Part shown: one piece after another, positions 2,527-40,392 of the stretch | Layout: each line of letters starts with the position of its first letter | How positions within the stretch are numbered: the stretch's first letter is position 1 | From: Methylobacterium sp. SyP6R | GTDB taxonomy: Bacteria > Pseudomonadota > Alphaproteobacteria > Rhizobiales > Beijerinckiaceae | NCBI RefSeq assembly: GCF_019216885.1 | Contig: NZ_JAAQRC020000001.1 | Location: 124,001-188,000, forward strand | Direction: 5' to 3' | DNA length: 64,000 bases | Notes under the pieces: model-generated | The model's database searches: none | Told to the model about the DNA's origin: nothing | Seen by the model: the letters and a program-made list of their open reading frames with translations, nothing else | Position numbers and translations under genes: made by a program

Positions 2527-3849
2527 TTATTGACGCTTCCACTCAGGCCGCAGACGATCAACCAAACGCTCAAGGCGCACCTGGCCGTAGTGCTTGTCAA
2601 TCATGGCCAGCGATGTACGGCAGTTTCGGGCCACGTCGAGCACTTCGGAGCCGTTGGCCAGCTGCTCGCTGATGTAGAAGTGTCGGAGAGAGTACGGCGT
2701 GCGTTTGATGCCGCGGTGGTCCCGCTCCAAGCCGGCCGCCTTCAGCAGTTCGGTGAAGCCGTTGGCCACCGACGTGATCCGCTTGCCCGTGTCGCTCGCA
2801 AACACCGGATCGGCATCTACGGGCTCACGGCCCATGCTGCGCTCGAACAGCATCCACAGGGTATCAAACCACGGGATCGCAGCCTTCTGCGGGATCGCCT
2901 TGCCGCTCCTGCCCTTGCCTCGCACCTGCAGCCGGATGTCGCGCTGATCCACGGGCTTGCCCCGCCCGGCCCGATACCCCAGCACGTCGCCCCACGTGAG
3001 ATTGTACATCTCAGTGGGCCTGAGCCCGGAGAATGCGCCGATCATCACGTAGGCGTGCAGCAGGGTGCGATCGCGCCGCGTATGATCGTCCAGCCGCTTG
3101 ATGCGCCAGCGACGCTTGTCGCTGGCCTCCACCATGGCTCCGCTGCCATCCATGATGGGGTCCACCAGCCGGCCGAGGCTGATCTTCTGCAGGTGAGCGA
3201 ACTCGTGTGGCTCAAAGCTGGGTCGCCGGTTGTCCGGCGTACGCCGGGCCTTGATGGTGACCTCCGGCGGCGTCTTCAGGTAGCCCTGCCGCGAGGCCCA
3301 GCGTAGCAGCTGCCTCAGCACCACCAGCTCGCCTCGCTGGCGGCTCAGAGAGGGCGCAGAGCGGCGTACGGGCCGGCGCAGGCGATGACCTCCCCTCTCG
3401 TACTCGATGTGCGTGATGAGCTTGCCAGGACCCTCGGTCCAGTAGGTGCGTCGCCACTCCGCATAGCGCTCCAGATCGGCCTCGCTGACGGCATCCACAG
3501 GCTTCTGGCCGAAATAGCCCACGAAGTACCGCCGGATCACTGCAGGCTCGCTCTTGCCCTGGTCCGCCCGCCGTTCGCCGCGCTCCACCTCACGCAGGAT
3601 CTGCGCGATGTACTCCTCAGCCACGCCCTCGAACGTGTGGGCGCGGGCAGTGAGCCCCTGCTGCGCGCGATACGTCGCCTCGTACCAGATGGCCTCCGCC
3701 CGGCGCTGTGCCTCCCGGAGATCGTCGGTGTCGAGGGAGCGCTTGAGCTGCCCCTGCCCGCGGATGCTGAAGCGCATCTGCCACTTGGCGCTGCCCTTGC
3801 GCTGGAACAGCTGGAAGCGCTCGTCGGGGACGTTGCCAGGGGGTCTCAA
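2527..3849 (-). CDS. Tyrosine recombinase / phage-type integrase
   Basis: The 440-residue protein has an N-terminal DNA-binding half and a C-terminal catalytic domain. The first catalytic Arg is in SGLRPTEM (R277), the second in YSLRHFYIS (R389), and the nucleophilic Tyr is in DKHYG (Y421). The usual first His of the HxxR box appears as Tyr386, and the usual GH before the nucleophile reads RNCRTS, so the box is divergent. The start is TTG at 3849; no ATG or GTG lies between it and the upstream in-frame stop. The gene sits beside the 3' end of tRNA-Met, the classic position for an integrase of a tRNA-targeted island. Its G+C is host-like, unlike the two cargo genes beyond it. It should excise or integrate the element whose right end is seen here. 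Confidence 0.9.
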   Translation of the reverse strand: MRPPGNVPDERFQLFQRKGSAKWQMRFSIRGQGQLKRSLDTDDLREAQRRAEAIWYEATYRAQQGLTARAHTFEGVAEEYIAQILREVERGERRADQGKSEPAVIRRYFVGYFGQKPVDAVSEADLERYAEWRRTYWTEGPGKLITHIEYERGGHRLRRPVRRSAPSLSRQRGELVVLRQLLRWASRQGYLKTPPEVTIKARRTPDNRRPSFEPHEFAHLQKISLGRLVDPIMDGSGAMVEASDKRRWRIKRLDDHTRRDRTLLHAYVMIGAFSGLRPTEMYNLTWGDVLGYRAGRGKPVDQRDIRLQVRGKGRSGKAIPQKAAIPWFDTLWMLFERSMGREPVDADPVFASDTGKRITSVANGFTELLKAAGLERDHRGIKRTPYSLRHFYISEQLANGSEVLDVARNCRTSLAMIDKHYGQVRLERLVDRLRPEWKRQ

Positions 3850-4051: not shown

Positions 4052-4128
4052 TGGTAGCGGAGGAGGGATTTGAACCCCCGACACAAGGATTATGATTCCT
4101 CTGCTCTGACCAACTGAGCTACTCCGCC
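4052..4128 (-). tRNA. tRNA-Met (anticodon CAU), elongator type
   Basis: A 77-nt cloverleaf can be folded by hand on the minus strand. It has a 7-bp acceptor stem closed by a G-U pair, a D arm, a 5-bp anticodon stem (GAGGA/TCCTT) with loop ATCATAA giving anticodon CAT, a T arm with TTCAAAT, and an encoded CCA at 4052-4054. The body resembles alphaproteobacterial elongator tRNA-Met. A CAT anticodon could in principle also be tRNA-Ile2 read with lysidine. Its 3' half is the probable integration target of the neighbouring element. Confidence 0.93.
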
Positions 4129-23988: not shown

Positions 23989-25512
23989 TCAGAGACTGGC
24001 CCGCTCCGCCGCCTGCAACACCGCCGCCGGGATCGCGGAGACGTGCTCCGCCTGGGCTCCCCGTCCGAGCGCATTCCCGACCATCACGATCGCCGGCCCC
24101 TCCAGCCCAGCCGCCTCGACCCGGTCGGCGAGGTCGTGGGCCTGCCCCTGCACCACCGCCTGGTCGGGCCGGGTGGCGTTGAACACCACCAGAGCCGGGG
24201 TCGCGGGCGGCAGGCCCTCGGCGACCGCCTTCGCCAGCAGGGTGCGCATCGTGCGCTTGGGCATGTAGATCACCGTCGTGACGGTGGGATCGGCGAGGGC
24301 GGCCCAGTTGAGGTCGTCGGGCAGGGCGCCGCGGCGGTCGTGGCCGGTGACGTATTGCAGGCGGCGTGCCGCGTCGCGGTGGGTGAGCGAGATGCCGAGC
24401 GACGCCGCCGCGCCCTGCGCCGCCGTGACGCCGGGCACCACGGTCACCGGGATGCCGGCCTCACGGCAGGCATCGATCTCCTCGCCGGCCCGGCCGAAGA
24501 CCAGGGGGTCGCCGGACTTGAGCCGCACCACGCGCTTGCCGCTTCCCGCCAGCGACACCATCAGGGCGTTGATGTCGTCCTGGCGGCAGGAGGGGCCGTG
24601 GCCGGTCTTGCCGACCAGCATCGTGCGGGCCTCGCGCCGGGCGTAATCCAGGATCTCCGGCGCGACGAGGTCGTCGTACAGGATCACGTCGGCGCTGCGT
24701 AGCGCCCGCAGGGCTTTGAGGGTGAGGAGTTCGGCGTCCCCCGGGCCGGCCCCGACCAGGACCACGCTGCCGCCGGTCGGGGCGGCATCGTTCTCGGCGA
24801 TGAGCCCGTCGAGATCGGCCCGGACCGGCGCCCGGTCCGGATGGGCGAAGGCGAGGTCGGTGAAGCGCTCCCAGAACGCCCGGCGCTCGCCGAACACATG
24901 GTAGCGGGCGCTCACCTCGGCGCGCCAGTCGCGGGCGGCGGCCACCCAGGCCTTGAAGCCCGAAGGCAGCATCGCCTCGATCCGGGCCCGCACGGTCTGG
25001 CCGAAGACCGGGACTGCGCCCTCCGTGGAGATGCCGACGACGAGGGGCGAGCGGTTGACGATGGCGCCGAACGACACGTCGCAGAGATGCGGCCGGTCGA
25101 TGGCGTTGACGATGGCGCCCGCGGCGCGGGCGGCGCCGACGAAGCATGCGCATTCGCCCTCGTCCTCGAAGGCCGCGATGGCGAAGGCGGCGCCTTCGAG
25201 ATCGGCCGGCGACCAGTCGCGCTCATGCAGCACCACCGTGCCGGCGACGGCCTCGGCAGGTGCGCCGCGCATCTCCTCGGTCGGTTCGGGGGCGAACACG
25301 TCGACATGGGCGCCGGCGGCGGCGAGCAGCTTCACCTTCCAAGCCGCACCCCCATTGGCCCCGGCCAGCACCGCGCGCTTGCCCGTGAGCGTCACGAAGA
25401 CCGGGAGAACGGCCAGGGGCTCGAGGCCCGGGGAGCGGGTCTCTCGGGGGGCACGGGGCGTACGCATGGGACGATGAGTGTCTGACACGAGTCTCGGGAA
25501 ATCCTGCGGCAT
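23989..25512 (-). CDS. cysG: Siroheme synthase (trifunctional CysG)
   Basis: CysG turns uroporphyrinogen III into siroheme, the cofactor of NirA upstream in the same operon. The N-terminal dehydrogenase/ferrochelatase half is present (RAVLAGANGGAAWKVKLL, NAIDRPHLCDVSFGAIVNRSPLVVGISTEG). So is the C-terminal methyltransferase half (VVLVGAGPGDAELLTLKALRAL, LYDDLV, RLKSGDPLVFGRAGEE, VPGVTAAQGAAASLGISLTHRD). The dehydrogenase half departs from consensus at the catalytic AATDD region, which reads AAFEDEGE. The start at 25512 lies 9 bp after the nasA stop; ATG 25467 is an alternative. It is the last gene of the nitrate cluster. Confidence 0.93.
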   Translation of the reverse strand: MPQDFPRLVSDTHRPMRTPRAPRETRSPGLEPLAVLPVFVTLTGKRAVLAGANGGAAWKVKLLAAAGAHVDVFAPEPTEEMRGAPAEAVAGTVVLHERDWSPADLEGAAFAIAAFEDEGECACFVGAARAAGAIVNAIDRPHLCDVSFGAIVNRSPLVVGISTEGAVPVFGQTVRARIEAMLPSGFKAWVAAARDWRAEVSARYHVFGERRAFWERFTDLAFAHPDRAPVRADLDGLIAENDAAPTGGSVVLVGAGPGDAELLTLKALRALRSADVILYDDLVAPEILDYARREARTMLVGKTGHGPSCRQDDINALMVSLAGSGKRVVRLKSGDPLVFGRAGEEIDACREAGIPVTVVPGVTAAQGAAASLGISLTHRDAARRLQYVTGHDRRGALPDDLNWAALADPTVTTVIYMPKRTMRTLLAKAVAEGLPPATPALVVFNATRPDQAVVQGQAHDLADRVEAAGLEGPAIVMVGNALGRGAQAEHVSAIPAAVLQAAERASL

Positions 25513-28488: not shown

Positions 28489-30102
28489 TCAATACACGTC
28501 AGCCTGGTACCGGTTCGCCTTCTTCAGCGCCGCGAGATACGCCACCGCCTCGTCCGGGTTCTTGCCGCCATGGCTCGCCGCAACGTCGATGATCGCTCGC
28601 TCGACGTCCTTGGCCATGCGCTTGGCATCGCCGCAGACGTAGAAGTGGGCGCCCTCCTCCAGCCAGCGCCACAATTCGCGGCCGTTCTCGCGCATCCGGT
28701 CCTGGACGTAGGTCTTCTCGGCCCCGTCGCGCGACCAGGCGAGCGACAGGCGGGTCAGCACGCCCTGATCCTTCAGGCCGTTCAGCTCGTCGCGATAGAA
28801 GAAGTCCGAGGCCTGGCGCTGATGGCCGTAGAACAGCCAGTTCTTGCCCGGCGCCGCAGTGGCGGCGCGCTCGCGCAGGAAGGCGCGGAACGGCGCGATG
28901 CCGGTGCCCGGACCGACCATGATGACCGGGGTCTCGGGCGTCGAAGGCAGGCCGAAGCCGTGCGCCTTCTGGAGGTAGACCTTCACCGTGGCGGTCTCGG
29001 CCAGGCGCTCGCCGAGATGGGTCGAGGCGACGCCCAGGCGCAGGCGCGAGCGGTGGCTGTAGCGCACCGCGTCGACGGTGAGCGAGACCCGGCCCGGATC
29101 GGCCTTGGGCGAGGACGAGATCGAGTAGAGCCGCGGCTGCAACTCGTCGAGGGCTTCGAGGAAGACCTCGGCGTCGGGCCGGGCGCCCGGGAACTTGTGC
29201 AGCGCGCCGAGCACGTCGAGATAGGCGGCGTCGCCATCCGGATCCTCGCCGGCGCTCAGCGCCTGGGCCTTCTTGCGCTGTGCGCCGGAGGTGAGGAGCG
29301 ACAGGAGCTGGAACAGGCCGTCGGGGGCACCGCCGAGGGAATAGTTGGTGAGCAGATGGTCGCGCAGGGTCTTCTCGCCGAGCTTGGTGGCGATGATCCG
29401 CTCCGGCCGGGCGCCGAGCTCGGCGATGACCGCATCCGCCAGGGCCGGGGCATTGGCGGGGAAGAGGCCGAGGGAATCGCCGACGACGTAGTCGATGCCG
29501 GTGCCGGCCAAATCGATCTCGACGTGCCAGGTCTCCTTCTCGCCGCCCGGCGCGTTGAGGCGGCGGCGTGACAGGAACACCGCCTCGGCCGGGTTCTCGC
29601 GGCACAGGCCGTAGGGGCCGACCGGGGCGTCTGCCTTCGGGGCGTCGTCGGAGGCCGCGGCGGCGGCACCGGCCGGCGCCGCGGTGCCGAACTCCGCCTC
29701 CAGCTTCTTCAGCATCCGGAGCGTGTCCTTGCCGCCCGGCTGGCAGAGGTTCAGGCGCTCCTCCTTCTTGAGGAAGAGGGCGTTGGCATAGTCGGCGCAG
29801 TTGTAGCCGCACTGGCCGCAATCCTGCTGGGCCATGGCGGCCATCAGCTTCTGCGGCTCGGAGCGGTCCTTGGCGAGCGCCATGCGGTCGTCGAGCCCCA
29901 TCGACGGGTCGTGCCAAGGGGCGTCGTCGTTGTCGGCCAAAGCCGGCCCGCCGGGCGCCGCGCCGGCCGGAAGCGCCGTCGCGCCCTCGACCGCCGGCCC
30001 GAGCAGGGCGGCGAAGTAGCCCGACAGCCAGGCGCGCTGGTCGGCGTTGAAGGGAGCGGATTCGGGGATCAGGACGAGCGGGGGAGCGACGTGCTGGGTC
30101 AT
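28489..30102 (-). CDS. CysJ/FNR-type NADPH reductase with N-terminal Cys-rich (Fe-S) domain
   Basis: The C-terminal 370 residues are a sulfite-reductase-alpha/cytochrome-P450-reductase type FAD-NADPH module: RLYSISSSP (FAD), VYLQKAHGFGLP, MVGPGTGIAPFRAFL (NADPH), FYGHQ and FYVCGDAKRMAKDVE. The flavodoxin (FMN) domain of true CysJ is missing. In its place, residues about 90-130 carry CGQCGYNCADYANAL followed by a further Cys, which looks like an Fe-S binding motif. Its position between nirA and nasA suggests it feeds electrons to nitrate and/or nitrite reduction rather than to sulfite. Total length is 537 residues. The electron path (NADPH to FAD to Fe-S to NirA or NasA) is inference. Confidence 0.82.
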   Translation of the reverse strand: MTQHVAPPLVLIPESAPFNADQRAWLSGYFAALLGPAVEGATALPAGAAPGGPALADNDDAPWHDPSMGLDDRMALAKDRSEPQKLMAAMAQQDCGQCGYNCADYANALFLKKEERLNLCQPGGKDTLRMLKKLEAEFGTAAPAGAAAAASDDAPKADAPVGPYGLCRENPAEAVFLSRRRLNAPGGEKETWHVEIDLAGTGIDYVVGDSLGLFPANAPALADAVIAELGARPERIIATKLGEKTLRDHLLTNYSLGGAPDGLFQLLSLLTSGAQRKKAQALSAGEDPDGDAAYLDVLGALHKFPGARPDAEVFLEALDELQPRLYSISSSPKADPGRVSLTVDAVRYSHRSRLRLGVASTHLGERLAETATVKVYLQKAHGFGLPSTPETPVIMVGPGTGIAPFRAFLRERAATAAPGKNWLFYGHQRQASDFFYRDELNGLKDQGVLTRLSLAWSRDGAEKTYVQDRMRENGRELWRWLEEGAHFYVCGDAKRMAKDVERAIIDVAASHGGKNPDEAVAYLAALKKANRYQADVY

Positions 30103-30364: not shown

Positions 30365-32152
30365 TTACTCGGCCGCCTCCAGCAGCCGGGCGTCGGCGAG
30401 GCCCTTTAGGGCCTCGGGCCCGCGGCGGGCGGTGTAGGCCTGGAAGCTCTCCTGCGGGCCGGTGCGGTTGGCGAGGTAGTCGGTGAGCAGGGCCTCGACC
30501 CGGCTGGGGCAGTCCTCGGCCTTCACGGCCTTCCAGATCTCGGTGCCGATCTTGGCCGCCTCGCCGAACCCGCCGCCGACCACGATGTCGTAGCCCTCGA
30601 CGGTGTCGCCCTCCTCGCTCACCGTCACCTTGGCGCCGATGAGGCCGATATCGCCGATGTAATGCTGGGCGCAGGAATGATGGCAGCCGGTGAGGTGGAC
30701 GTTGACCGGCACGTCGAGACCCGGCACCGCGGCCTCGACGTGGTCGGCGATGAGGAGCGCGTGGCCCTTGGTGTCGGCGGCGGCGAACTTGCAGCCGCGG
30801 TTGCCCGTGCAGGCGACGAGGCCGGCGCGGATGCTCGACGCCTTGGTGGAGAGCCCGAGGGCCGCCACGCGGGCTTCGACCTCCGCCACCTTGTCGTCGG
30901 GCACGCCGGAAAAGAGAAAATTCTGCCACACGGTCAGGCGGATCTGGCCGTCGCCGTAGTCGTGCGCGATCGTGGCGAGCGCCCGCATCTGGTCGGTGGT
31001 CATCTTGCCGACCGGCAGCACCACGCCGATCCAATTGAGGCCCGGCTGGACCTGGGCGTGCACCCCGACATGGGCGTAGCGGTCGAAGCCGCCGCGGGGC
31101 TTCACATGGGCGGGATCGACCCGCTCCAGCTTGCGGCCGAGCTTCTCCTCGACGGCGGCGAGGTACTTGTCATAGCCCCAGGCGTCGAGGACGTATTTCA
31201 TCCGCGCCTTGTTGCGGTTGGTGCGGTCGCCGTTCTCGATGAAGACCCGCAGGATCGCATCGGCGACGGCGTTGCACTCGCGGGGCCTCAGGACTACGCC
31301 GGTGTCGCGGGCGATGTCGCGGTGGCCGGTGATGCCGCCGAGGACGAGCCGCATCCAGATGCCCGGCTCGACCGCGGCGCCCTCCAGAACCTCGATCGCC
31401 TGGAAGCCGATATCGTTGGTCTCCTCCAGCACCGGCAGCACGCCGCCGCCGTCGAAGGCGACGTTGAACTTGCGCGGCAGGCCGAAGAGCGAGCGGTCGT
31501 TGAGGATGTGGTTGTGCCAGGATTTCGCCAGGGGGCGCGTGTCGAGGAGTTCCTGGGCGTCGATGCCCGCCGTCGGCGAGCCGGTGACGTTGCGGATGTT
31601 GTCGGCGCCCGCGCCCCGGGCGGTGAGGCCGAGATCGATCAGCCCGTCGAGGAAGGGCTGGCCGTGCTCGGGGCTGATCTCCCGCACCTGGAGGTTCGCC
31701 CGCGTCGTGACGTGGCTGTAGCCGCCGCCATGGGCGTCGGCGAGATCGGCGATGCCGGCGAATTGCCAGTGATGCAGGATGCCGTTCGGGATCCGCAGGC
31801 GGCACATGTAGGAGTTCTGGGCCGGCGCGACCCAGAACAACCCGTGATAGCGCCAGCGAAAATTGTCCTCGGGCTTCGGGGCCTTGCCGGTCTCGGCCTC
31901 GGCGATCAGCCGGTTGTGGCCGTCGAAGGGGTTCTCGGCCCGCTTCCACTTCTCCTGGTCGGCGAGCTTGCCGCCGTTCTTCACGATGCGGTCCTGCGCC
32001 TTGATGTGGATCGCGTCCGGCCCGGTCGGCTCGGCGGCGGGCGCAGGCGCAGTTCCGCCGCCGGCGAGGCCGCCGGTCATGCGGAGGGCGGCGATGCCGT
32101 GGGAGAAGCCTTCGAGGTAGCGCTTCTGCTCGGCGTCGAAGTCGTCGGCCAT
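30365..32152 (-). CDS. nirA: Ferredoxin-type nitrite reductase (siroheme, 4Fe-4S)
   Basis: NirA reduces nitrite to ammonium with six electrons in the cytoplasm. The siroheme/[4Fe-4S] ligands are in CTGNRGCKFA and TGCHHSCAQHYIGDIGLIG (C-x5-C ... C-x3-C). Other typical segments are FRWRYHGLFWVAPAQNSYMCRLRIPNG, RANLQVREI and NVTGSPTAGID. I chose ATG 32152 (MADDFDAEQKRYLEGF), which has GAAGGAG upstream, giving 595 residues; the frame upstream to 32260 overlaps the preceding gene. It starts 11 bp after the FAD oxidoreductase gene. Together with cysG and the leader switch it is part of the assimilatory nitrate operon. Confidence 0.94.
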   Translation of the reverse strand: MADDFDAEQKRYLEGFSHGIAALRMTGGLAGGGTAPAPAAEPTGPDAIHIKAQDRIVKNGGKLADQEKWKRAENPFDGHNRLIAEAETGKAPKPEDNFRWRYHGLFWVAPAQNSYMCRLRIPNGILHHWQFAGIADLADAHGGGYSHVTTRANLQVREISPEHGQPFLDGLIDLGLTARGAGADNIRNVTGSPTAGIDAQELLDTRPLAKSWHNHILNDRSLFGLPRKFNVAFDGGGVLPVLEETNDIGFQAIEVLEGAAVEPGIWMRLVLGGITGHRDIARDTGVVLRPRECNAVADAILRVFIENGDRTNRNKARMKYVLDAWGYDKYLAAVEEKLGRKLERVDPAHVKPRGGFDRYAHVGVHAQVQPGLNWIGVVLPVGKMTTDQMRALATIAHDYGDGQIRLTVWQNFLFSGVPDDKVAEVEARVAALGLSTKASSIRAGLVACTGNRGCKFAAADTKGHALLIADHVEAAVPGLDVPVNVHLTGCHHSCAQHYIGDIGLIGAKVTVSEEGDTVEGYDIVVGGGFGEAAKIGTEIWKAVKAEDCPSRVEALLTDYLANRTGPQESFQAYTARRGPEALKGLADARLLEAAE

Positions 32153-32163
32153 TGCGGGCTCCT

Positions 32164-33381
32164 TCACGCTGCGAGGGGTTGGGGAGTGGGGCGCCCGAAC
32201 ATCAGGTCGTCCCGGTCGTCGGACGTGATGGTGTCGCCGGTGCGGATCAGGGTCTTGCACCAGCCCTGCTCGGCGACGTCGCCGACGAAGACCGCGCCGA
32301 TCAGCTGGTCGCCGTCGATCACGAGCTTGCGGTAGAGGCCGGCGGCCGGATCGCTCCAGGTCACGGCTTGCGCGCCCTCGGGCACGTCGACCGCACCGGC
32401 GGAGAAGACCGGCAGGCCCGACACCTTGAGGCTGGTCGCGAGCGAGGTGCCGGCGTAAGCCGCCTCGATCCCGCAGAGATGGCGGGCCAGCACCTCGGCC
32501 TGCTCGTAGGCCGGCTCGACGAGGCCGTAGGTCTGGCCCCTATGCTCGGCGCATTCGCCGAGCGCGTAGATGCCCGGGACCGAGGTCGCCATCGCGTCGT
32601 CGACCCGGATGCCGCGGCCGACCGCGAGGCCGGCGCTGGCGGCGAGCGCCGTCGAGGGGCGCACGCCGACCGACATCACCACGAGATCGGCCGGCAGCAC
32701 CGTGCCGTCGGACAGGATCAGGCGCTCGACCCGGCCGTCGCCCTCGACCGACGCGGTGTCGGCCTTGAGCAGCACCCGGACGCCGCGGGCCTCCATCGCC
32801 TCGCGCACCAGGCTGGCGGCGGCGTGATCGAGCTGGCGCTCCATCAGCCGGTCCATGACGTGGAGGAGCGTGGTGTCGACCCCGAGCCGCGCCAGCCCCA
32901 CCGCCGCCTCGAGCCCCAGCAGCCCGCCGCCGATCACGATGGCCCGGGCTCCCGCCACCGCCGCCCGGCGGATCGCCGCCACGTCGGCGAGGTCCCGGAA
33001 GGTGATGACGCCCGGAAGATCCATCCCGGGCTTCGGCAGCCGGATCGGCACCGAGCCGACCGCCAGGACCAGCTTGTCGTAGGGCAGCACCAGCCCCTCG
33101 CCGACCTGCACCACCCGCTCGGCGGTGTCGATCGCGGTCGCCGGCGCGCCGGTGACGAGGGTGATGCCGTGCTCGGCGTACCAGTCGAGCCCGCGGAAGG
33201 TGCAGGCCGCCTCGTCGACCTCGCCGCCGAGCAGCGACGACAGGAGCACCCGGTTATAGGCCGCCACCGGCTCGGCGCCGATGCAGGTGACGGCGTAGCG
33301 GCCGGGGGCGGCATCGAGCAGGCGCTCCAGGAAGCGGAGCGAGGCCATGCCATTGCCGATGACGACGAGGCGCTCGGACAT
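32164..33381 (-). CDS. NAD(P)/FAD-dependent oxidoreductase (NirB N-terminal / NasB-like)
   Basis: The 405-residue protein is a two-dinucleotide-binding-domain flavoprotein. It has VVIGNGMASLRFLERL for FAD, AYNRVLLSSLLGG, a second GxGxxG at IVIGGGLLGLEAAVGLARLG for NAD(P)H, and the closing ATSVPGIYALGECAEH. This is the fold of the N-terminal half of NADH-dependent nitrite reductase NirB and of NasB electron donors, without the siroheme part. ATG 33381 (MSERLVVIGNGMAS) is preferred; the longer frame overlaps the ATPase gene. It probably passes electrons from NAD(P)H to NirA or NasA. Which protein it serves cannot be told here. Confidence 0.88.
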   Translation of the reverse strand: MSERLVVIGNGMASLRFLERLLDAAPGRYAVTCIGAEPVAAYNRVLLSSLLGGEVDEAACTFRGLDWYAEHGITLVTGAPATAIDTAERVVQVGEGLVLPYDKLVLAVGSVPIRLPKPGMDLPGVITFRDLADVAAIRRAAVAGARAIVIGGGLLGLEAAVGLARLGVDTTLLHVMDRLMERQLDHAAASLVREAMEARGVRVLLKADTASVEGDGRVERLILSDGTVLPADLVVMSVGVRPSTALAASAGLAVGRGIRVDDAMATSVPGIYALGECAEHRGQTYGLVEPAYEQAEVLARHLCGIEAAYAGTSLATSLKVSGLPVFSAGAVDVPEGAQAVTWSDPAAGLYRKLVIDGDQLIGAVFVGDVAEQGWCKTLIRTGDTITSDDRDDLMFGRPTPQPLAA

Positions 33382-33385
33382 GGGA

Positions 33386-34195
33386 TCAGGCCGCGATCGC
33401 GGGTTTGGCGTGGCGGGCGTAGAGGAATTCCAGCACCTCGGCCCGGGCATGGGTGTAGGTCGGGTCCTCGACGAGCTCCAGGCGCTTGCGCGGCCGGGAG
33501 AGCGGCACGGACAGGATCTCACCGATCGTCGCCGAGGGTCCGTTCGTCATCATGACGATCCGGTCGGAGAGCAGAACCGCCTCGTCGACGTCGTGGGTGA
33601 TCATGATGACGGTGTTCTTCAACCGAAGGTGGATCTCCATCAGCTGGTCCTGGAGATGCGCCCGGGTCAGGGCGTCGAGCGCGCCGAAGGGCTCGTCCAT
33701 CAGCAGAACCTTCGGCTCCATGGCGAGCGCCCGGGCGATGCCGACGCGCTGCTTCATGCCGCCGGAGATCTCGTGCGGGCGCTTCTCGGCGGCGTGGGTC
33801 ATGTTGACGAGCGCGAGGTTGTGCTCGATCCAGTCGCGCCGCTCCGCCCGGTTCTTCTTCGATTTCAGTACCTTGTCGACGGCGAGCGCCACGTTCTCGC
33901 GCACCGTCAGCCAGGGCAGGAGCGAGTGGTTCTGGAACACCACCGCCCGCTCGGGGCCGGGGCTGTTCACCTCCTTGCCGTCGAGGAGGACGCCGCCGGT
34001 GGAGGCCTTCAGAAGACCCGCCACGATGTTGAGCACGGTCGACTTGCCGCAACCGGAATGGCCGATCAGCGAGACGAACTCGCCCTTGTCGATCTTCAGG
34101 TTCACGTCGCGCAGCACTTCCGTGGTGCGCCCCGACCGGGTGAAGCTGATGCCGATCTGCTCGAGGCTGAGATGGGTCGAAGTGAGAGTGGTCAT
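33386..34195 (-). CDS. nrtD: Nitrate ABC transporter, ATP-binding protein
   Basis: The 269-residue ATPase has Walker A GHSGCGKST, signature SGGMKQR, Walker B VLLMDEPFGALD and the switch His in ITHDVDEAVLLSDR. It belongs to the nitrate/sulfonate/taurine (NrtC/D, SsuB, TauB) group and, like NrtD, lacks the substrate-binding-like extension of NrtC. It lies 12 bp after the permease gene and 4 bp before the oxidoreductase gene. It should energise cytoplasmic nitrate uptake with the adjacent permease and binding protein. Confidence 0.92.
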   Translation of the reverse strand: MTTLTSTHLSLEQIGISFTRSGRTTEVLRDVNLKIDKGEFVSLIGHSGCGKSTVLNIVAGLLKASTGGVLLDGKEVNSPGPERAVVFQNHSLLPWLTVRENVALAVDKVLKSKKNRAERRDWIEHNLALVNMTHAAEKRPHEISGGMKQRVGIARALAMEPKVLLMDEPFGALDALTRAHLQDQLMEIHLRLKNTVIMITHDVDEAVLLSDRIVMMTNGPSATIGEILSVPLSRPRKRLELVEDPTYTHARAEVLEFLYARHAKPAIAA

Positions 34196-34207: not shown

Positions 34208-35068
34208 TCAGGCCGTGGCGGTGCCGCGGGTGACGAGGTGGCCGAGGCCGGCGACGAGGCGGTCGAGCACGAAGCCGATCATCCCGACATAGAGCAGGGC
34301 CACGATGATCTCGCTGATATGCGAGGAGTTCCAGGCGTCCCAGATGAAGAAGCCGATGCCGACGCCGCCGATCAGCATCTCGGCGGCCACGATGGCGAGC
34401 CAGGACAGGCCGACGCCGATGCGAAGACCGGTGAAGATATACGGCGCCGCCGAGGGCAGCATCACCTTGGCAAAGAACTCGAAGGCGTTGAGGCGGAGCA
34501 CCGCGGCGACGTTGCGGTAATCCTGCGGGATGTTGCGGATACCGACCGCGGTGTTGATGATGATCGGCCAGATCGACGTGATGAAGATCACGAAGATCGC
34601 CGAGGGCTGGCCGTCCCGGAAGGCGGCGAGGGAGAGCGGCAGCCAGGCGAGCGGCGGGATGGTGCGCAAGACCTGGAAGATCGGGTCCAGCCCGCGCATC
34701 GCCCATTCGGACTGGCCGACGAGCGTACCCAGCAGCACGCCGGCCACCACCGCCAGGGTGAAGCCGAGCGCCACGCGCTGGAGGCTGGCGGTGATGTGCC
34801 AGAACAATCCCTTGTCGGTACCGCCATTGTCGTAGAACGGGTGGACGATGATGTCCCAGGCATCGGTCACGACGCGCGAGGGCGGCGGCAGGCCGGCGCC
34901 GGGGCGCCCGCACAGAACTTCCCAGATGAGCAGGAAGACCGCCAGCACGACGAGGGGCGGCACGATCCGCAGCGCCAGGCCTTTCAGGGCGGCGCGGGTG
35001 ACCAGAGGGGCTTTCGCCCCCTCGGCCTTGGCGGCGCCGAGGCGCCCGAGGCTCAATCCGAGTGCCAT
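34208..35068 (-). CDS. nrtB: Nitrate ABC transporter permease
   Basis: The 286-residue integral membrane protein has about six hydrophobic segments: IVPPLVVLAVFLLIWEVL near residues 34-51, then a cluster from about 95 to 270. The EAA-type cytoplasmic loop expected for binding-protein-dependent permeases lies around AAVLRLNAFEFFAKVMLPSAAPYIFTGLRIG. That loop sequence is characteristic of the NrtB/SsuC/TauC group. Its start codon lies 1 bp past the nrtA stop, so translation is probably coupled. Confidence 0.92.
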   Translation of the reverse strand: MALGLSLGRLGAAKAEGAKAPLVTRAALKGLALRIVPPLVVLAVFLLIWEVLCGRPGAGLPPPSRVVTDAWDIIVHPFYDNGGTDKGLFWHITASLQRVALGFTLAVVAGVLLGTLVGQSEWAMRGLDPIFQVLRTIPPLAWLPLSLAAFRDGQPSAIFVIFITSIWPIIINTAVGIRNIPQDYRNVAAVLRLNAFEFFAKVMLPSAAPYIFTGLRIGVGLSWLAIVAAEMLIGGVGIGFFIWDAWNSSHISEIIVALLYVGMIGFVLDRLVAGLGHLVTRGTATA

Positions 35069-35069
35069 G

Positions 35070-36356
35070 TCACGCCACCTTCTTGATGCCGAGGCTGTTG
35101 AGGTAGGCGGCAGGATCCGCCGGATCGAAGACCTTACCGTCGAAGAAGGTCTCCTGGCCGCGCGAGGTCGAGGCCGGCGCCGTGACGCCCATGCCCTTGG
35201 CCACCTCGCGCCAGATGTCCTCGCGGTTGACCTTGTCGATCAGCGCCTTGGTGTCGGTCTGGGGATCGAACTTGCCCCAGCGGATGTCCTCGGTGAGGAA
35301 CCAGAGGTCGTGCGACTTGTACGGATACGAGGCGTTGTCGGCCCAGTACTTCATGATGTGCGGGCTGTTCGACACCTTGCGGCCGTCGCCGTAATCGAAC
35401 TCGCCCTTCATCCGCTTGACGACGTCGCTCGCCGGGACGTTGATCCACTGGCGCTTGGCGACGATGCCGGCGAGCTCGTCACGGTTCTCCGGCTTGTCGC
35501 ACCATTGTTGCGCCTCCATCACGGCGGCGAGCAGGGCTTTCGCGGCATTCGGGTGCTTGTCGACCCAGGACGCGCGCATGCCGAGCGCCTTTTCCGGGTG
35601 GTCCTTCCACAATTCGCCGGTGGTCAGCGCGGTGTAGCCGATGCCCTGCGTGATCAGCTGCTCGTTCCACGGCTCGCAGACGCAGAAGCAATCCATCGTG
35701 CCGACCTTCATGTTCGCGACCATCTGGGCCGGCGGCACGACGATGGTCTCGATGTCCTTGTCGGGGTCGATGCCGCCGGCGGCGAGCCAGTAGCGGATCC
35801 AGAGGTCGTGGGTGCCGCCCGGGAAGGTCATCGCGGCCTTCACCGACTTGCCGGACGCCTTCTTGCGCTCGAGCGCCGCCTTGAAGGGCTTGGTATCGAG
35901 GGCGACCTTGTCGCCCATATGCTCCTTGGCGACCGAGATGCACTGGCCGGCGAGGTTGAGCCGGGCCAGGATGTACATCGGGACGGGGACGTTGTTCTGT
36001 GTCACCCGGCCGGCGCTGATCAGGTAGGGCATCGGGGTCAGGATGTGGGCCCCGTCGATGCCGTTGCCCTCGGATCCGAGCACCAGGTTGTCGCGGGTGG
36101 TGCCCCAGGAGGCCTGCTTCAGGACCTCGACGTCCGGCATCCCATGCTTGGCGAAGATGCCCTTCTCCTTGGCGACGAAGAGGGGAGCGGCGTCGGTGAG
36201 CGCGATGAAGCCGAGCTTGGCGCCCTTCACCTCGGGTCCGGCTCCCTGCGCGAAGGCGCCGCCGGGCAGGGCCACGCGGGAGGCCGCCGCCAGCGACAGG
36301 GCGCCGGCCGCCCCCTTGAGGAGGCCGCGACGCGTGGTGTGCTCAACGCTGCTCAT
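35070..36356 (-). CDS. nrtA: Nitrate ABC transporter substrate-binding protein
   Basis: The 428-residue protein starts with a twin-arginine signal (TTRRGLLKGAAGALSLAAAS, about residues 7-26, cleavage near AFAQ). It continues with the NrtA/CmpA fold: KLGFIALTDAAPLFVAKEKGIFAKHGM, VLKQASWGTTRDNLVLG, and the hallmark FCVCEPWNEQLI near the nitrate pocket. It is the first gene of the operon. A 165-nt untranslated leader with an ANTAR-type switch and a sigma-54 promoter motif precedes it. The paralogue nasS 2.4 kb away lacks a signal peptide and has the sensor rather than the transport role. Confidence 0.93.
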   Translation of the reverse strand: MSSVEHTTRRGLLKGAAGALSLAAASRVALPGGAFAQGAGPEVKGAKLGFIALTDAAPLFVAKEKGIFAKHGMPDVEVLKQASWGTTRDNLVLGSEGNGIDGAHILTPMPYLISAGRVTQNNVPVPMYILARLNLAGQCISVAKEHMGDKVALDTKPFKAALERKKASGKSVKAAMTFPGGTHDLWIRYWLAAGGIDPDKDIETIVVPPAQMVANMKVGTMDCFCVCEPWNEQLITQGIGYTALTTGELWKDHPEKALGMRASWVDKHPNAAKALLAAVMEAQQWCDKPENRDELAGIVAKRQWINVPASDVVKRMKGEFDYGDGRKVSNSPHIMKYWADNASYPYKSHDLWFLTEDIRWGKFDPQTDTKALIDKVNREDIWREVAKGMGVTAPASTSRGQETFFDGKVFDPADPAAYLNSLGIKKVA

Positions 36357-36414: not shown

Positions 36415-36520
36415 AAAAACCGCTGCCCAAGGTCTTCCGCCGGCCGCGCGGTTGCGGGCCCACAGGGGAACTCGGGTCAGCGGCTCTGCTGACGGTCGGT
36501 GCCCGTCGACGCTGACGGAC
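36415..36520 (-). promoter_or_regulatory. NasT (ANTAR) antitermination leader of the nrt-nas operon
   Basis: On the minus strand, hairpin 1 (36520-36501) has 7-bp arms and a hexaloop AGCGTC. Seven nt later hairpin 2 (36493-36476) has 6-bp arms GTCAGC/GCTGAC and hexaloop AGAGCC. Both loops have A at position 1 and G at position 4, the published ANTAR-RNA signature. The 5' arm of an intrinsic terminator (36483-36471, 3' arm 36431-36420, then TTTTT at 36419-36415) overlaps loop and 3' arm of hairpin 2, so the two folds exclude each other. NasT is encoded at 39763-40392. Binding of NasT when nitrate or nitrite is present should release the block on nrtA and the genes behind it. Confidence 0.85.
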
Positions 36521-36531
36521 GGGACAGGATG

Positions 36532-36547
36532 AGCAGGTTCCGTGCCA
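36532..36547 (-). promoter_or_regulatory. Sigma-54 (-24/-12) promoter of the nrt-nas operon
   Basis: The minus strand reads TGGCACGGAACCTGCT, with GG and GC exactly 12 bp apart as RpoN requires. The predicted start is near 36521, so the transcript would begin immediately with the first antitermination hairpin. I found no convincing NtrC enhancer in the 230 bp upstream; GTGCGATGCAC at 36633-36643 is palindromic but does not have the NtrC spacing. Confidence 0.75.
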
Positions 36548-36777
36548 ACTGCCTCGCGGGCCAATCAAGTGCTTGAAACTGGTATCGTTCGCAGCTTGGC
36601 CGGGCAGGCGGCGGCATCAGCTCGGCCGGCGAGTGCGATGCACAAATGATAGGCTGGACGGGCGGGGAAATGGGCAGCCGTGCCGTGACCGGAAACGTTG
36701 CTCCCCCTGGATCGATCTCCGATCGGTCGGCCTGGGCGAGGGTTGCCCTGCGATCCTTGCAGCCACCGATGGTTCCT

Positions 36778-37779
36778 TCACGATCGGGATGCCGCCTCTC
36801 GACATGGCTCGTGAGGACTTGGCTCGTGAGGACTTGGCTCCCGAGAACCTGGCTCCCGAGAACCTGGCTCCCGAGAAGGCCGCGCCGACGCGACCGCGTC
36901 GCCCGAACGCGGCTTCGCCTGTCCGGGTGGCCCTCCCGTCGCGCCCCGTCCGAGCTGCGGCGTCAGGTACCAGACCACGGCGGCCAGAACGATCGCGCCT
37001 CCCAGCAGCGCGCCGGGGCCGGGATCTTCGGATACGACGATCCAGACCCAGAGCGGGCCGAGCACGACGTCGAGAAGTCCGATCAGCGCCGCTTCCGTGG
37101 AGGGGATATGACGGCTGCCCATCAGGAACAGGAGGAAGGACAAGGCCGTCGTCAGGATGCCCAGGGCGGCGAGAAGGGCCAGGGCGGTCGTGCCCGGCAC
37201 GGCACCCGAGGACAGGGGCAGGGCCACGAGCACGCACAGAAGCGCGGCGACGGCATTGACCCGGACGAGGTCGACCCGCTCGAAGCGGCGCGCCACGATC
37301 AGCAGCCCGGCAAAGGCGACGGTCATCAGGACGGCGAACCCGTTCCCTGCCGCGTCGTCGAGACGCGCCGACCGACCGGCGACCATCAGGACCCCGATCA
37401 GGGACGCCGCACTCGCGATCAGCATCCGCCGCGATGCGCGTTCGCCCAGCAGCCACCAAGCCAGCCCTGCGGCGGCGAAGGGGAGCGTCGCGTAGACGAC
37501 CAGGACGTTGGCCACGCTCGTCAGGGTGAGCGACGCAGCGTAGGCGGCCATCGTGACGGCGGCCAGCACCGACGCGCCGAAACCGCTCCACCCGAACCTC
37601 ATGCCCCGGGCGGGACGGAGGATCGCGATCGCCAGGAGGGCGAGGCCGGCGAACGCGGAGCGCCACAGGATCAGGTCCCAGACCGGCAGATCGATCAGGC
37701 GCACGAACAGCCCGGCGAGGCTCCAGAGGAATGCAGCGGCCGTCACGAGGACGAGCCCGTCTCGGCGTCGATGATCCAT
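36778..37779 (-). CDS. EamA/DMT-family transporter with repetitive C-terminal tail
   Basis: The protein has about ten transmembrane helices in two EamA repeats (residues about 8-140 and 150-275), with family phrases such as FLWSLAGLFVRLI, LLGERASRRMLIASAASLIGVLMV and STEAALIGLLDVVLGPLWVWI. It is a drug/metabolite transporter of unknown substrate. The last 60 residues are hydrophilic and end in pentapeptide repeats (REPGS, HEPSP) encoded by 15-bp DNA repeats, not part of the membrane fold. It is divergent from the TetR-type gene with two operator-like sites between them, so that repressor probably controls it. Confidence 0.87.
   Translation of the reverse strand: MDHRRRDGLVLVTAAAFLWSLAGLFVRLIDLPVWDLILWRSAFAGLALLAIAILRPARGMRFGWSGFGASVLAAVTMAAYAASLTLTSVANVLVVYATLPFAAAGLAWWLLGERASRRMLIASAASLIGVLMVAGRSARLDDAAGNGFAVLMTVAFAGLLIVARRFERVDLVRVNAVAALLCVLVALPLSSGAVPGTTALALLAALGILTTALSFLLFLMGSRHIPSTEAALIGLLDVVLGPLWVWIVVSEDPGPGALLGGAIVLAAVVWYLTPQLGRGATGGPPGQAKPRSGDAVASARPSREPGSREPGSREPSPHEPSPHEPCREAASRS
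36805..36879. repeat. 15-bp tandem repeat (five units) in the EamA C-terminal tail
   Basis: Five in-frame units of 15 bp follow the pattern TGGCTCGTGAGGACT (twice) and TGGCTCCCGAGAACC (three times, last slightly changed). Each encodes five residues of the tail, so unit number can vary without a frameshift. Confidence 0.85.
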
Positions 37780-38764: not shown

Positions 38765-39766
38765 TCACGCCGGCGCCAGCAGGTCCGGCCTGTACAGACC
38801 CACCGCCTCCGCCGGCACCGCCCCGCCCTCGATCTGCCCCGCCGCCGCCATCTCGTCGATCATCCAGCCGAGGGCGCGAGGATCGGGGGTGAGTTCCGGC
38901 TCGCCGAGCACGAGATAGTCCGAGGCCTCGACCATCGGCCCGCCCGGCGCGAGGCGCAACGCCCCGGCCAGGCCCCGCACGATCAGCGCCGGATCGATCC
39001 CGAGATGGCGCGGGGCGCCGAGCAGGCCGGCCAAAGCCTCGCGGTTGTCCGGATCGCCGCACCAGCGGGCGCTGCGCTTCAGGGCGCGCAGGAGCGGGGC
39101 GGCACGGTCCTCCATCTCGGCGGGAAGCGCCAGGACCTTCTCCGGGCAGCCCGGCGCGATCGCGCTGCCCAGGGCCGCGATGCGGCCGACCCCGGCCTCG
39201 ACGGCGACGCTGCTCCAGGGGGCGCCGACGCAGAAGCCGTCGATCGCGCCGCCTTGCAACGCCGCGACGGTGCGGGGCGGCGGGACCACGACGAGGCGGA
39301 CCGAAGCGAGCGAGCTGCCGCCGAGCGCCAGCAGGCGCCGCCACTGATAGGTGTGGCTGGAATAGGGATGGACGGTGCCGAGCGTCAGCGGGCGCCCCTC
39401 GGCGGCGCGGGCCTCGGCCACCCGGGCGAGCGAGCGCGCCACATCCGCCACGGCGTCGGATTCGGCATCGAGTGCCTGCCAGAGCGGCAGCGACAGGGTC
39501 ACGGCGTTGCCGTTGCGGGCGAGCGCCGCCGGCGCGATCAGGCGCGCCTGCGGCCCGCTCAAGCCTAAATGGCAGGCGAGCGCCAGCGGCGCCAGCATGT
39601 GGGCGCCGTCGAGGAGGCCGAGCGCCAGGCGGTCGCGTAAGGTCGCCCAGGAGGGTTCCGCCACCAGGTCGACGGCGAGCCCCTCCTCGTCGGTGAAGCC
39701 GCGCTCCACCGCGGCGATCAGCACCGCGGCGTCGGTGAGCGGAACGTAGCCGAGCTGCAGCCTCAT
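38765..39766 (-). CDS. nasS: NasS, cytoplasmic nitrate/nitrite sensor (NrtA-like)
   Basis: This 333-residue protein shares the NrtA/CmpA fold with the transporter-binding protein (LQLGYVPLTDAAVLIAAVERGF, AEPSWATLRDRLALGLLDGAHM, IDGFCVGAPWSSVAVEAG) but has no signal peptide. That is the mark of the NasS sensor. In Azotobacter and Paracoccus, NasS binds and inhibits NasT until nitrate or nitrite releases it. Its ATG (39764-39766) overlaps the nasT stop by 4 bp, so the two are translationally coupled and presumably made in fixed ratio. The open frame upstream to 40645 belongs to the nasT region and is not coding in that frame. Confidence 0.92.
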   Translation of the reverse strand: MRLQLGYVPLTDAAVLIAAVERGFTDEEGLAVDLVAEPSWATLRDRLALGLLDGAHMLAPLALACHLGLSGPQARLIAPAALARNGNAVTLSLPLWQALDAESDAVADVARSLARVAEARAAEGRPLTLGTVHPYSSHTYQWRRLLALGGSSLASVRLVVVPPPRTVAALQGGAIDGFCVGAPWSSVAVEAGVGRIAALGSAIAPGCPEKVLALPAEMEDRAAPLLRALKRSARWCGDPDNREALAGLLGAPRHLGIDPALIVRGLAGALRLAPGGPMVEASDYLVLGEPELTPDPRALGWMIDEMAAAGQIEGGAVPAEAVGLYRPDLLAPA

Positions 39767-40392
39767 CCGAGCAGGTCCGCGGCGGTGACGATCGCGCGGG
39801 CGATGTCGACGATCTTGCGCTTCTCGTTCATGGCCTTGCGCCGGAGCTGCTTGTAGGCCTCGTCCTCGGTCAGCCCCTTGGCGCTCATCAGGATGCCCTT
39901 GGCGCGCTCGATCAGCTTGCGGTCGGCCAGCTCGCCCTTCGCCTCGCTGAGCTCCCGCTGCAGCCGCGCGAAGGCGTTGAAGCGCAGGATCGCGATCTCG
40001 ATGATGGGCTTGATCCGCTCGGCCCGCAGACCGTCGACGATATAGGCCGAGATGCCGGCATCGACCGCCGCCTGCATCATCGGCGTGTCGGTGCGGTCGA
40101 CGAACATCGCCACCGGCCGCTCGACCAGGCGCGAGACCCCGAACATCTGCTCCAATACGTCGCGGCTCGGGCTCTCGAGGTGGATCACCACCACGTCCGG
40201 CGAGACGGCGGAGAGCCGGTCGAGGAGGTCGGCGGTGTCGGGGATGACCACGACCCGGGCGCCCTCGACGGCGCGCAGGCCCTCTTCCAGGATCGCGGCC
40301 CGGGCGCGGCTCGGGTCGACGACGGCGATGGTGAGGCTCTCGCCCGGCGAGGCGGCGGAGGAGGCCGGAGACGGTGTTGCGCGGTCGGGCAT
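39763..40392 (-). CDS. nasT: NasT, ANTAR-domain antitermination regulator
   Basis: The 209-residue protein has an N-terminal receiver-like domain (SLTIAVVDPSRARAAILEEGL, with degenerate phosphoacceptor area) and a C-terminal ANTAR RNA-binding domain (DRKLIERAKGILMSAKGLTEDEAYKQLRRKAMNEKRKIVDIARAIV, residues about 155-200). ANTAR proteins bind paired hexaloop hairpins. The nrtA leader of this window has exactly such a pair. NasT should therefore allow read-through into the nitrate operon when NasS releases it. The first 18 residues are Ser/Pro/Ala-rich and may be disordered. Confidence 0.93.
   Translation of the reverse strand: MPDRATPSPASSAASPGESLTIAVVDPSRARAAILEEGLRAVEGARVVVIPDTADLLDRLSAVSPDVVVIHLESPSRDVLEQMFGVSRLVERPVAMFVDRTDTPMMQAAVDAGISAYIVDGLRAERIKPIIEIAILRFNAFARLQRELSEAKGELADRKLIERAKGILMSAKGLTEDEAYKQLRRKAMNEKRKIVDIARAIVTAADLLG

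What the first reader, a model, noticed from the sequence alone, without database searches (positions are those of the whole stretch)
36415..36547. Complete NasT-type RNA antitermination switch behind a sigma-54 promoter, in the same window as its regulator pair
Seen directly: TGGCAC-N5-CTGCT with GG and GC 12 bp apart; two hairpins with hexaloops AGCGTC and AGAGCC, each with A at loop position 1 and G at 4, 7 nt apart; and a terminator (arms 36471-36483 and 36420-36431, then T5) whose 5' arm reuses the 3' half of hairpin 2. The predicted start (about 36521) is 1 nt before hairpin 1. Known: ANTAR proteins such as NasR/NasT/EutV bind paired A1/G4 hexaloops and prevent terminator formation. Inference: the operon is gated twice, by nitrogen limitation (RpoN/NtrC) and by nitrate/nitrite (NasS-NasT). 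The link of promoter, switch, sensor and target in one locus makes a testable model for this genus.
Basis: partly seen in the sequence, partly recalled or inferred. Interest (0 to 1): 0.75.

Follow-up and report, generated by a model that had tools for sequence, protein, structure and literature searches.

The report
NasT nitrate RNA switch in Methylobacterium
A bacterium's nitrate-use genes sit behind a promoter of the nitrogen-starvation type followed by an RNA switch that a neighbouring nitrate-sensor pair probably opens; the design is of a known kind, but comparing relatives shows two unusual offshoots of it worth testing.

Summary
On the minus strand upstream of nrtA lie a sigma-54 box, two hairpins with A1/G4 hexaloops, and a terminator plus T5 that reuses the 3' half of hairpin 2. 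Host: Methylobacterium. nasT and nasS are in the window; the genome has one ANTAR protein, one rpoN, one ntrC over cut-off and one strong leader. Of 47 same-type leaders, 47 keep A1 and G4 in both loops; 110 of 111 genus genomes match the leader model and 109 of 111 have an ANTAR protein. I add an NtrC-like box (36640-36654); its motif occurs upstream of 85 of 104 leaders. So this is a new member of a known kind: ANTAR P1P2 antitermination by NasST. Nothing was measured. These make the A1 rule and the need for a terminator testable.

The parts
36640..36654 (-). NtrC-like enhancer box GCCT-N7-GTGC, 107 nt upstream of TGGCAC
   Evidence: motif GCMY-N7-GTGC (or GCAC-N7-RKGC) in the 250 nt upstream of 85 of 104 leaders vs 6.75 in dinucleotide shuffles (pattern widened after seeing the alignment); enteric consensus GCAC-N7-GTGC is recalled
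36532..36547 (-). sigma-54 promoter TGGCACGGAACCTGCT
   Evidence: TGGCA-N7-TGC box found 150-270 nt upstream of the nrtA match in all 59 Methylobacterium/Methylorubrum nrtA loci, window included; genome-wide 8 strict boxes against 51 for the backward control, so the box counts by its place and conservation only
36521..36521 (-). predicted transcription start (12 nt after the GC)
   Evidence: spacing only; not measured
36501..36520 (-). hairpin P1, loop AGCGTC (36513-36508), A1 and G4
36476..36493 (-). hairpin P2 (antiterminator), loop AGAGCC (36487-36482), A1 and G4
36415..36483 (-). intrinsic terminator: 5' arm 36483-36471 (overlaps P2), 3' arm 36431-36420, T5 36419-36415
35070..36356 (-). 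nrtA, nitrate ABC transporter binding protein (NMT1_2), Tat-like signal by eye
34208..35068 (-). nrtB, permease (BPD_transp_1)
33386..34195 (-). nrtC/D, ABC ATPase
32164..33522 (-). NirB-like FAD oxidoreductase (start uncertain; ORF overlaps the gene upstream)
   Evidence: below the NirB cut-off
30365..32260 (-). NirA-family nitrite reductase
   Evidence: NF007126, 1046.8 bits; start codon uncertain
28489..30102 (-). CysJ-like flavoprotein
   Evidence: NF004859
25522..28254 (-). probable assimilatory nitrate reductase (NasA/NasC-like) with BFD [2Fe-2S] tail
   Evidence: no NCBIfam model above its cut-off among those shown (best Fdh-alpha 426.4, NasC 411.5 of 1100); start uncertain
23989..25512 (-). 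siroheme synthase CysG
   Evidence: NF007922
39763..40392 (-). nasT, receiver-like plus ANTAR RNA-binding regulator
   Evidence: receiver domain is below the Pfam cut-off (24.4 vs 30.2)
38765..39745 (-). nasS, nitrate/nitrite sensor (NMT1_2, no signal peptide by eye; start codon chosen by me)

Best explanation
A two-gate control region for nitrate assimilation. Gate 1 (inferred from motif, spacing and conservation): under nitrogen limitation phospho-NtrC, bound at 36640-36654, activates sigma-54 polymerase at 36547-36532, with a start near 36521. Gate 2 (inferred from anatomy, covariation and the known family mechanism): without nitrate or nitrite, NasS holds NasT, P2 melts into the longer terminator and transcription stops at the T5, about 103-107 nt into the leader. 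With nitrate or nitrite, NasT is freed, binds P1 and P2 as a dimer and stabilises P2, so the terminator cannot close and polymerase reads into nrtABC and the genes after it. Shown: the sequence elements, their conservation and the presence of every trans factor. Not shown: start site, binding, termination and operon extent.
For: Exact anatomy and thermodynamics. Conservation: 47 of 47 class I leaders have A at loop position 1 and G at 4 in both loops, while positions 2 and 3 of both loops and 5 and 6 of loop 1 vary. H1+H2 cells 95.8% paired against at most 62.9% when slid, covariation score 0.216 vs 0.166 with 0/500 shuffles reaching it; terminator 93.3% paired against at most 50.5% slid, 25 double-change cells vs 10.4, 0/500. 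Leader model hit in 110 of 111 genus genomes, ANTAR protein in 109 of 111. One ANTAR protein and one strong leader in this genome. rpoN and ntrC present. NtrC-like box. ANTAR match to EutV with the RNA-contact Tyr, Met and Asn kept.
Against: No experiment. Some covariation measures do not exceed shuffles: pairs with a change on both sides (73/500 for H1+H2, 494/500 for the terminator) and further pair types for the terminator (500/500); the sequences are related, so the shuffle controls are weak. Positions 5 and 6 of loop 2 are also invariant (C, C), so invariance there is not special to positions 1 and 4. 4 of 47 class I leaders lack a T4 run. In 15 of 46 distinct class I leaders the second pair below loop 1 is not a standard pair. 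The sigma-54 box is not enriched genome-wide (8 against 51 for the backward control). The NtrC box in the window departs from the recalled consensus in one half (GCCT). Outside the genus the full design is not general: 17 of the 22 Bradyrhizobium-type nrtA loci show no leader of this type before nrtA with the model (default filters, E <= 1, where one further hit near nrtA, L066 at E 0.89, is at chance level), and no sigma-54-like box was seen in the 40 nt before any of 20 leaders from other genera of the family, though a wider scan saw one at three of them. Two genus genomes have a leader but no ANTAR protein found (G058, G129; drafts of 90 and 94% completeness).
Confidence: 0.93

Rival explanations
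1. Only the terminator is real: a constitutive attenuator, or the 3' end of an upstream transcript, and the two hexaloops are incidental.
For: The terminator helix is the most stable element, and single A1/G4 hexaloop hairpins are frequent by chance (mean 15.7 per shuffled window).
Against: A1 and G4 are invariant in both loops in 47 of 47 leaders while several neighbouring loop positions vary. In 14 leaders that lack a terminator the loops survive; in the consensus fold of 12 of them they are the only structure besides a pairing inside the promoter box.
Confidence: 0.03
2. Gate 1 is not NtrC but another sigma-54 activator (for example NtrX), so the promoter answers to a signal other than nitrogen limitation.
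For: Besides the one ntrC over cut-off (698.4 bits) the genome has 9 further matches to the ntrC model of 226.8 to 401.5 bits, all under the cut-off. The box in the window is half degenerate.
Against: In the ten relatives aligned the box lies at nearly the same place, and in more distant ones it fits the recalled NtrC consensus well, for example CGCACAGTTTTTGTGCA.
Confidence: 0.12
3. NasT acts on this leader mainly by something other than antitermination, such as RNA stability or Rho, as the terminator-less relatives might suggest.
For: 14 leaders of relatives keep promoter and loops without an intrinsic terminator; non-terminator ANTAR RNAs are known (PMC3369931 section 10, part 1; PMC8164766 passages).
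Against: In the window the terminator is complete, overlaps P2 and covaries across 47 leaders.
Confidence: 0.05

Closest known systems
Paracoccus denitrificans nasTS-nasABGHC (PMC5424462, PMC3795266; passages seen)
   Same: NasS-NasT nitrate/nitrite sensor pair, hairpin leader before the nas operon to which NasT binds, NtrBC control of the system
   Different: There the NtrC-binding site shown by mutation is at the nasT promoter and a site before nasA was still unidentified; here the NtrC-like box and sigma-54 promoter lie directly before the switch, the first target is nrtABC, and tetR and eamA genes lie between nasS and the leader
Klebsiella oxytoca nasF leader with NasR (PMC7496416, PMC3369936; passages seen)
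   Same: P1P2 hairpins with A1/G4 hexaloops, P2 overlapping a terminator, nitrate signal; Ntr/sigma-54 promoter (recalled, not in the passages)
   Different: NasR is a one-component NIT-ANTAR protein; here sensor and RNA binder are separate (NasS, NasT)
Bradyrhizobium diazoefficiens NasT leaders: nosR (shown), nirA (predicted) (PMC6759348; passages seen)
   Same: NasT antitermination on leader hairpins
   Different: Regulon reaches denitrification genes; here one strong leader in the genome
Enterococcus faecalis EutV leaders (PMC3369931 sections 7 and 10 part 1; PMC8934654 passages)
   Same: General ANTAR P1P2/terminator mechanism and loop rule
   Different: EutV is a phosphorylated response regulator for ethanolamine; NasT is thought to be held by a binding protein

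Membership tests
ANTAR-target RNA (P1P2 dual hexaloop) | two hairpins with hexaloops, A1 and G4 in each, short linker | tested here: met
   47 of 47 class I leaders; linker 7 nt
ANTAR-target RNA (P1P2 dual hexaloop) | closing C:G pair under each hexaloop (PMC7496416 passages) | tested here: met
   C-G closing pair in 46 of 46 distinct rows for both hairpins
ANTAR antitermination leader | intrinsic terminator mutually exclusive with P2 | tested here: met
NasS-NasT system | ANTAR regulator next to an NMT1/NrtA-like cytoplasmic sensor | tested here: met
   17 nt between nasT and nasS; lack of a signal peptide judged by eye
NasS-NasT system | nitrate/nitrite releases NasT from NasS; NasT binds the leader | not testable with these tools
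   needs purified proteins
sigma-54/NtrC-controlled promoter | -24/-12 box, upstream NtrC site, rpoN and ntrC in the genome | tested here: met
   the NtrC half-site in the window is imperfect and the box alone is not enriched genome-wide
Rfam RNA families | match above the gathering score | tested here: not met
   only a tRNA in the whole window; three hits far under their gathering scores at the leader

The most novel reading that the evidence does not exclude
The genus holds two natural departures from the ANTAR rule book, both probably read by the same kind of NasT. (a) In 43 leaders of one group, P2 has G instead of A at loop position 1; the extra G1-C6 pair should shut the hexaloop to a tetraloop, so NasT would have to open it. 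That would make A1 a tunable lock rather than an obligate contact, in line with the EutV-RNA structure, where A1 makes no specific contact. (b) In 14 leaders before nrtABC the promoter and both A1/G4 loops persist without an intrinsic terminator, so NasT there would work through another step, for example Rho-dependent termination or RNA stability. 13 genomes carry both kinds, which would let one NasT give two graded responses to nitrate.
Probability: 0.3. Interest if true: 0.6.

Novelty: new member of a known kind. Interest (0 to 1): 0.4.

Why it matters
It gives a complete, checkable wiring diagram (NtrC box, sigma-54 promoter, two-hairpin switch, sensor and binder) for nitrate use in Methylobacterium, a genus of plant-associated methylotrophs; the listings of my paper searches (titles and starts of abstracts only) showed no description of it there. 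The comparison also supplies near-identical natural RNA pairs (loop AAGGCC against GAGGCC in the same 22-nt hairpin) that bear on why loop position 1 is conserved, for which the EutV-RNA structure paper offers only a suggestion (PMC8934654 passages), and leaders that test whether NasT can act without an intrinsic terminator.

Tried and rejected
Rfam gave no ANTAR family. Weak extra model hits in the own genome (17.9 bits and below) were treated as chance. Two extra weak hits that I read in relatives (L176, L177) have a terminator, but my scan found no P1 and no promoter there, and L226 has one hairpin, no T4 run and no second hexaloop hairpin; all three were dropped from the counts of leaders. 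An idea that class II leaders carry a small upstream ORF starting in loop 1 was dropped because L021 and L057 have ACG there (alignment). An idea that class II leaders replace the terminator by one conserved long hairpin rests on single-sequence folds; the consensus fold of 12 of the 14 shows only P1, P2 and a pairing inside the promoter box, so I do not claim it. Coevolution of NasT with G1: residue 171 is A/R in 55 A1-group rows and L/M/I in 18 G1-group rows (the A1 group contains duplicate loci of single genomes), but the G1 taxa form one group in the NasT tree except L091, with weak support, so this is one event and no independent test. My first loop regex failed on all rows through a wrong gap and my promoter-based scan failed on 17 of 20 family loci; both were redone from model coordinates. 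In one search the loop-1 regex picked a neighbouring place in 3 of 47 class I rows (ACAGGT, ACAGGC, AAAGCC); the loop-1 count I rely on for class I is that on alignment columns.

Full report
What is there. The minus-strand region upstream of nrtA was read directly. The fold of the leader gives P1 and a helix containing the terminator (z -3.22). RNA ending at P2 folds as P1 plus P2, and enforcing P2 on the RNA up to the T run costs 6.9 kcal/mol, as expected of a switch that needs a protein.

Chance. Single A1/G4 hexaloop hairpins are common (16 observed, 15.7 expected), but a close pair (1 observed, 0.075 expected) directly behind a strict sigma-54 box did not occur in 40 shuffles of the window. 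The box by itself is not enriched: 8 matches in the genome, 51 for the backward control. The leader model gives 104.2 bits here and 17.9 at the next place in the genome.

Surroundings. nasT 39763-40392 has the ANTAR domain and is the only ANTAR match of the genome. nasS 38765-39745 is an NMT1_2 protein, by eye without a signal sequence. Between nasS and the leader lie a TetR gene (+ strand) and an EamA transporter gene (- strand). Downstream of the leader on the same strand come nrtA, nrtB, an ABC ATPase, a NirB-like FAD oxidoreductase, a NirA-family nitrite reductase, a CysJ-like flavoprotein, a probable nitrate reductase and cysG. That they form one transcript is inferred. rpoN and one ntrC over cut-off are in the genome. 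The nine records with 96-99% identical NrtA are Methylobacterium (indicum, platani, aquaticum and others).

Conservation. Of 80 loci found by NrtA (303 relatives found, best 80 kept), 58 are Methylobacterium/Methylorubrum records (one labelled only Methylobacteriaceae) and 22 are Bradyrhizobium, Rhodopseudomonas and kin, set aside from these counts. With the window, 59 leaders: a TGGCA-N7-TGC box is at the expected place in all 59. I sorted them by eye into 47 with a terminator (class I) and 12 without (class II). In class I, A1 and G4 are invariant in both loops, 47 of 47; C5 and C6 of loop 2 are invariant too, the other loop positions vary. P1+P2 cells are 95.8% paired against at most 62.9% when slid; the terminator 93.3% against at most 50.5%; covariation scores exceed all 500 shuffles, but the counts of doubly changed pairs do not. 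43 of 47 have a T4 run; L011, L036, L037 and L039 do not. Of the 22 outside loci, 4 match the leader model before nrtA at E <= 0.002 (L060, L067, L071, L077) and L072 at 0.12; the other 17 show nothing better than chance there.

Genus and family. In 111 genomes of the genus, a pattern of promoter plus P1 plus P2 (A at position 1 of loop 2) matches 79, its backward control 0; an ANTAR protein is found in 109; the leader model matches 110 at E <= 0.1 (stricter filters). The one without is 70% complete. The two without ANTAR (G058, G129) are drafts. In a draw of 397 family genomes 86 match at E <= 0.01, in 10 of 43 genera (stricter filters). No sigma-54-like box was seen in the 40 nt before any of the 20; a wider scan saw one before L223, L224 and L225.

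Gate 1. A conserved box lies 107 nt upstream of TGGCAC (window 36640-36654, GCCTATCATTTGTGC), at nearly the same place in the ten relatives aligned. A narrow NtrC pattern set before counting (one mismatch allowed) is in 24 of 104 upstream regions against 2.5 in simple shuffles. The wider pattern, set after seeing the alignment, is in 85 of 104 (class I 41 of 47, class II 6 of 14, the second leader type 38 of 43) against 6.75 in dinucleotide shuffles. Related sequences are not independent. The enteric NtrC consensus is recalled. A published Paracoccus consensus (PMC5424462, passages) shares the two GC steps but not all positions.

First departure: a second leader type. In 43 of the 111 genomes the model's best hit scores 45-74 bits. 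It lies within 2.5 kb of the nasT hit in 40 of the 43 by their coordinates; in G098 and G113 it is on another contig and in G108 19 kb away. In the loci I opened with a clear gene call (L127, L131, L132) it stands between nasS and the NirB-like or NirA gene. All 43 were read: sigma-54 box in 43 of 43, T4 run in 41 of 43 (L127 and L172 have TTTCT), loop 1 A1/G4 in 43 of 43, but loop 2 GAGGCC (41) or GAGGCT (2): G at position 1 in 43 of 43. Rhodopseudomonas leaders (AACGCT) and the leaders read from other genera have A, so G looks derived. Folding predicts a G1-C6 pair (0.97 for GAGGCC, 0.58 with U6 for GAGGCT) that shuts the loop to four bases, against none for the otherwise identical class I hairpin with AAGGCC. 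In EutV, A1 to U in either loop lowers induction (PMC3369931 section 7), yet A1 makes no specific contact in the EutV-RNA structure, whose authors suggest that it prevents cross-loop pairing (PMC8934654, passages). Actinobacterial predictions have A and G at these positions in 'more than 50%' (PMC8164766, passages), so exceptions are not unique.

Second departure: terminator-less leaders. 14 nrtA leaders (12 of the 58 loci plus L128 and L130) keep promoter and A1/G4 in both loops, 14 of 14, but have no T4 run, except one in L017 that lies well downstream of where class I has its own. In the 12 aligned, the hairpin stretch (88% column identity) is nearly as conserved as the promoter (91%), the rest 61-64%. 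In the NrtABC tree (59 leaders plus 5 of the 22 outside loci) class I is one clade (0.998) and class II groups together with low support (0.255); Rhodopseudomonas leaders have a full terminator with T8, so loss is the simpler reading. By matching sequences and coordinates the 14 correspond to 14 of the 111 genomes: 13 also have the G1-type leader, and the fourteenth (G129) shows neither that nor an ANTAR protein. In G034 nrtA leader and nasT are 2.3 Mb apart, in G063 72 kb. Terminator-less ANTAR RNAs have been predicted before (PMC3369931 section 10, part 1).

Judgement. The window feature is a well-supported new member of a known kind. Papers: passages or named sections only, as stated. Searches for a Methylobacterium or Methylorubrum description and for NasT leaders in Alphaproteobacteria listed none that I could recognise from titles and starts of abstracts, in an open-access library that misses most subscription papers.

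Noticed in passing
L127, L129, L131-L135, L138-L173 (leaders of the second type in 43 relatives): Loop 2 of the ANTAR hairpin pair has G instead of A at position 1 in 43 of 43, predicted to close the hexaloop.
   Followed up: partly
L012-L015, L017, L018, L021, L040, L042, L045, L049, L057, L128, L130: nrtA leaders with sigma-54 box and both A1/G4 hexaloops but no intrinsic terminator.
   Followed up: partly
window about 36560-36585 (-) and the same place in L002-L010: A second conserved block upstream of the promoter, TTTCAAnCACTTGA-like, between the NtrC-like box and the -24 element (alignment, which left out L005).
   Followed up: no
L061-L066, L068-L070, L073-L076, L078-L081, upstream of nrtA: These 17 loci have a TTGGCAY-N5-TTGAATAG-like element (TTGA where the -12 GC would be expected) followed by a CGACGCCATTGAAGCCGTC-like hairpin; no hit of the leader model before nrtA better than chance.
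   Followed up: no
window 4055-4128 and 2527-3849 (-): A tRNA gene near an ORF that looks by eye like a phage-type integrase, possibly the edge of an integrated element.
   Followed up: no
window 36778-37779 (-): The EamA transporter ends in a low-complexity tail with repeated REPGS/HEPS units.
   Followed up: no
G428, G420, G363, G218, G242: Some genomes of other genera in the family carry two or three leader copies, in several cases about 3.5 kb apart, suggesting multi-operon NasT regulons.
   Followed up: no
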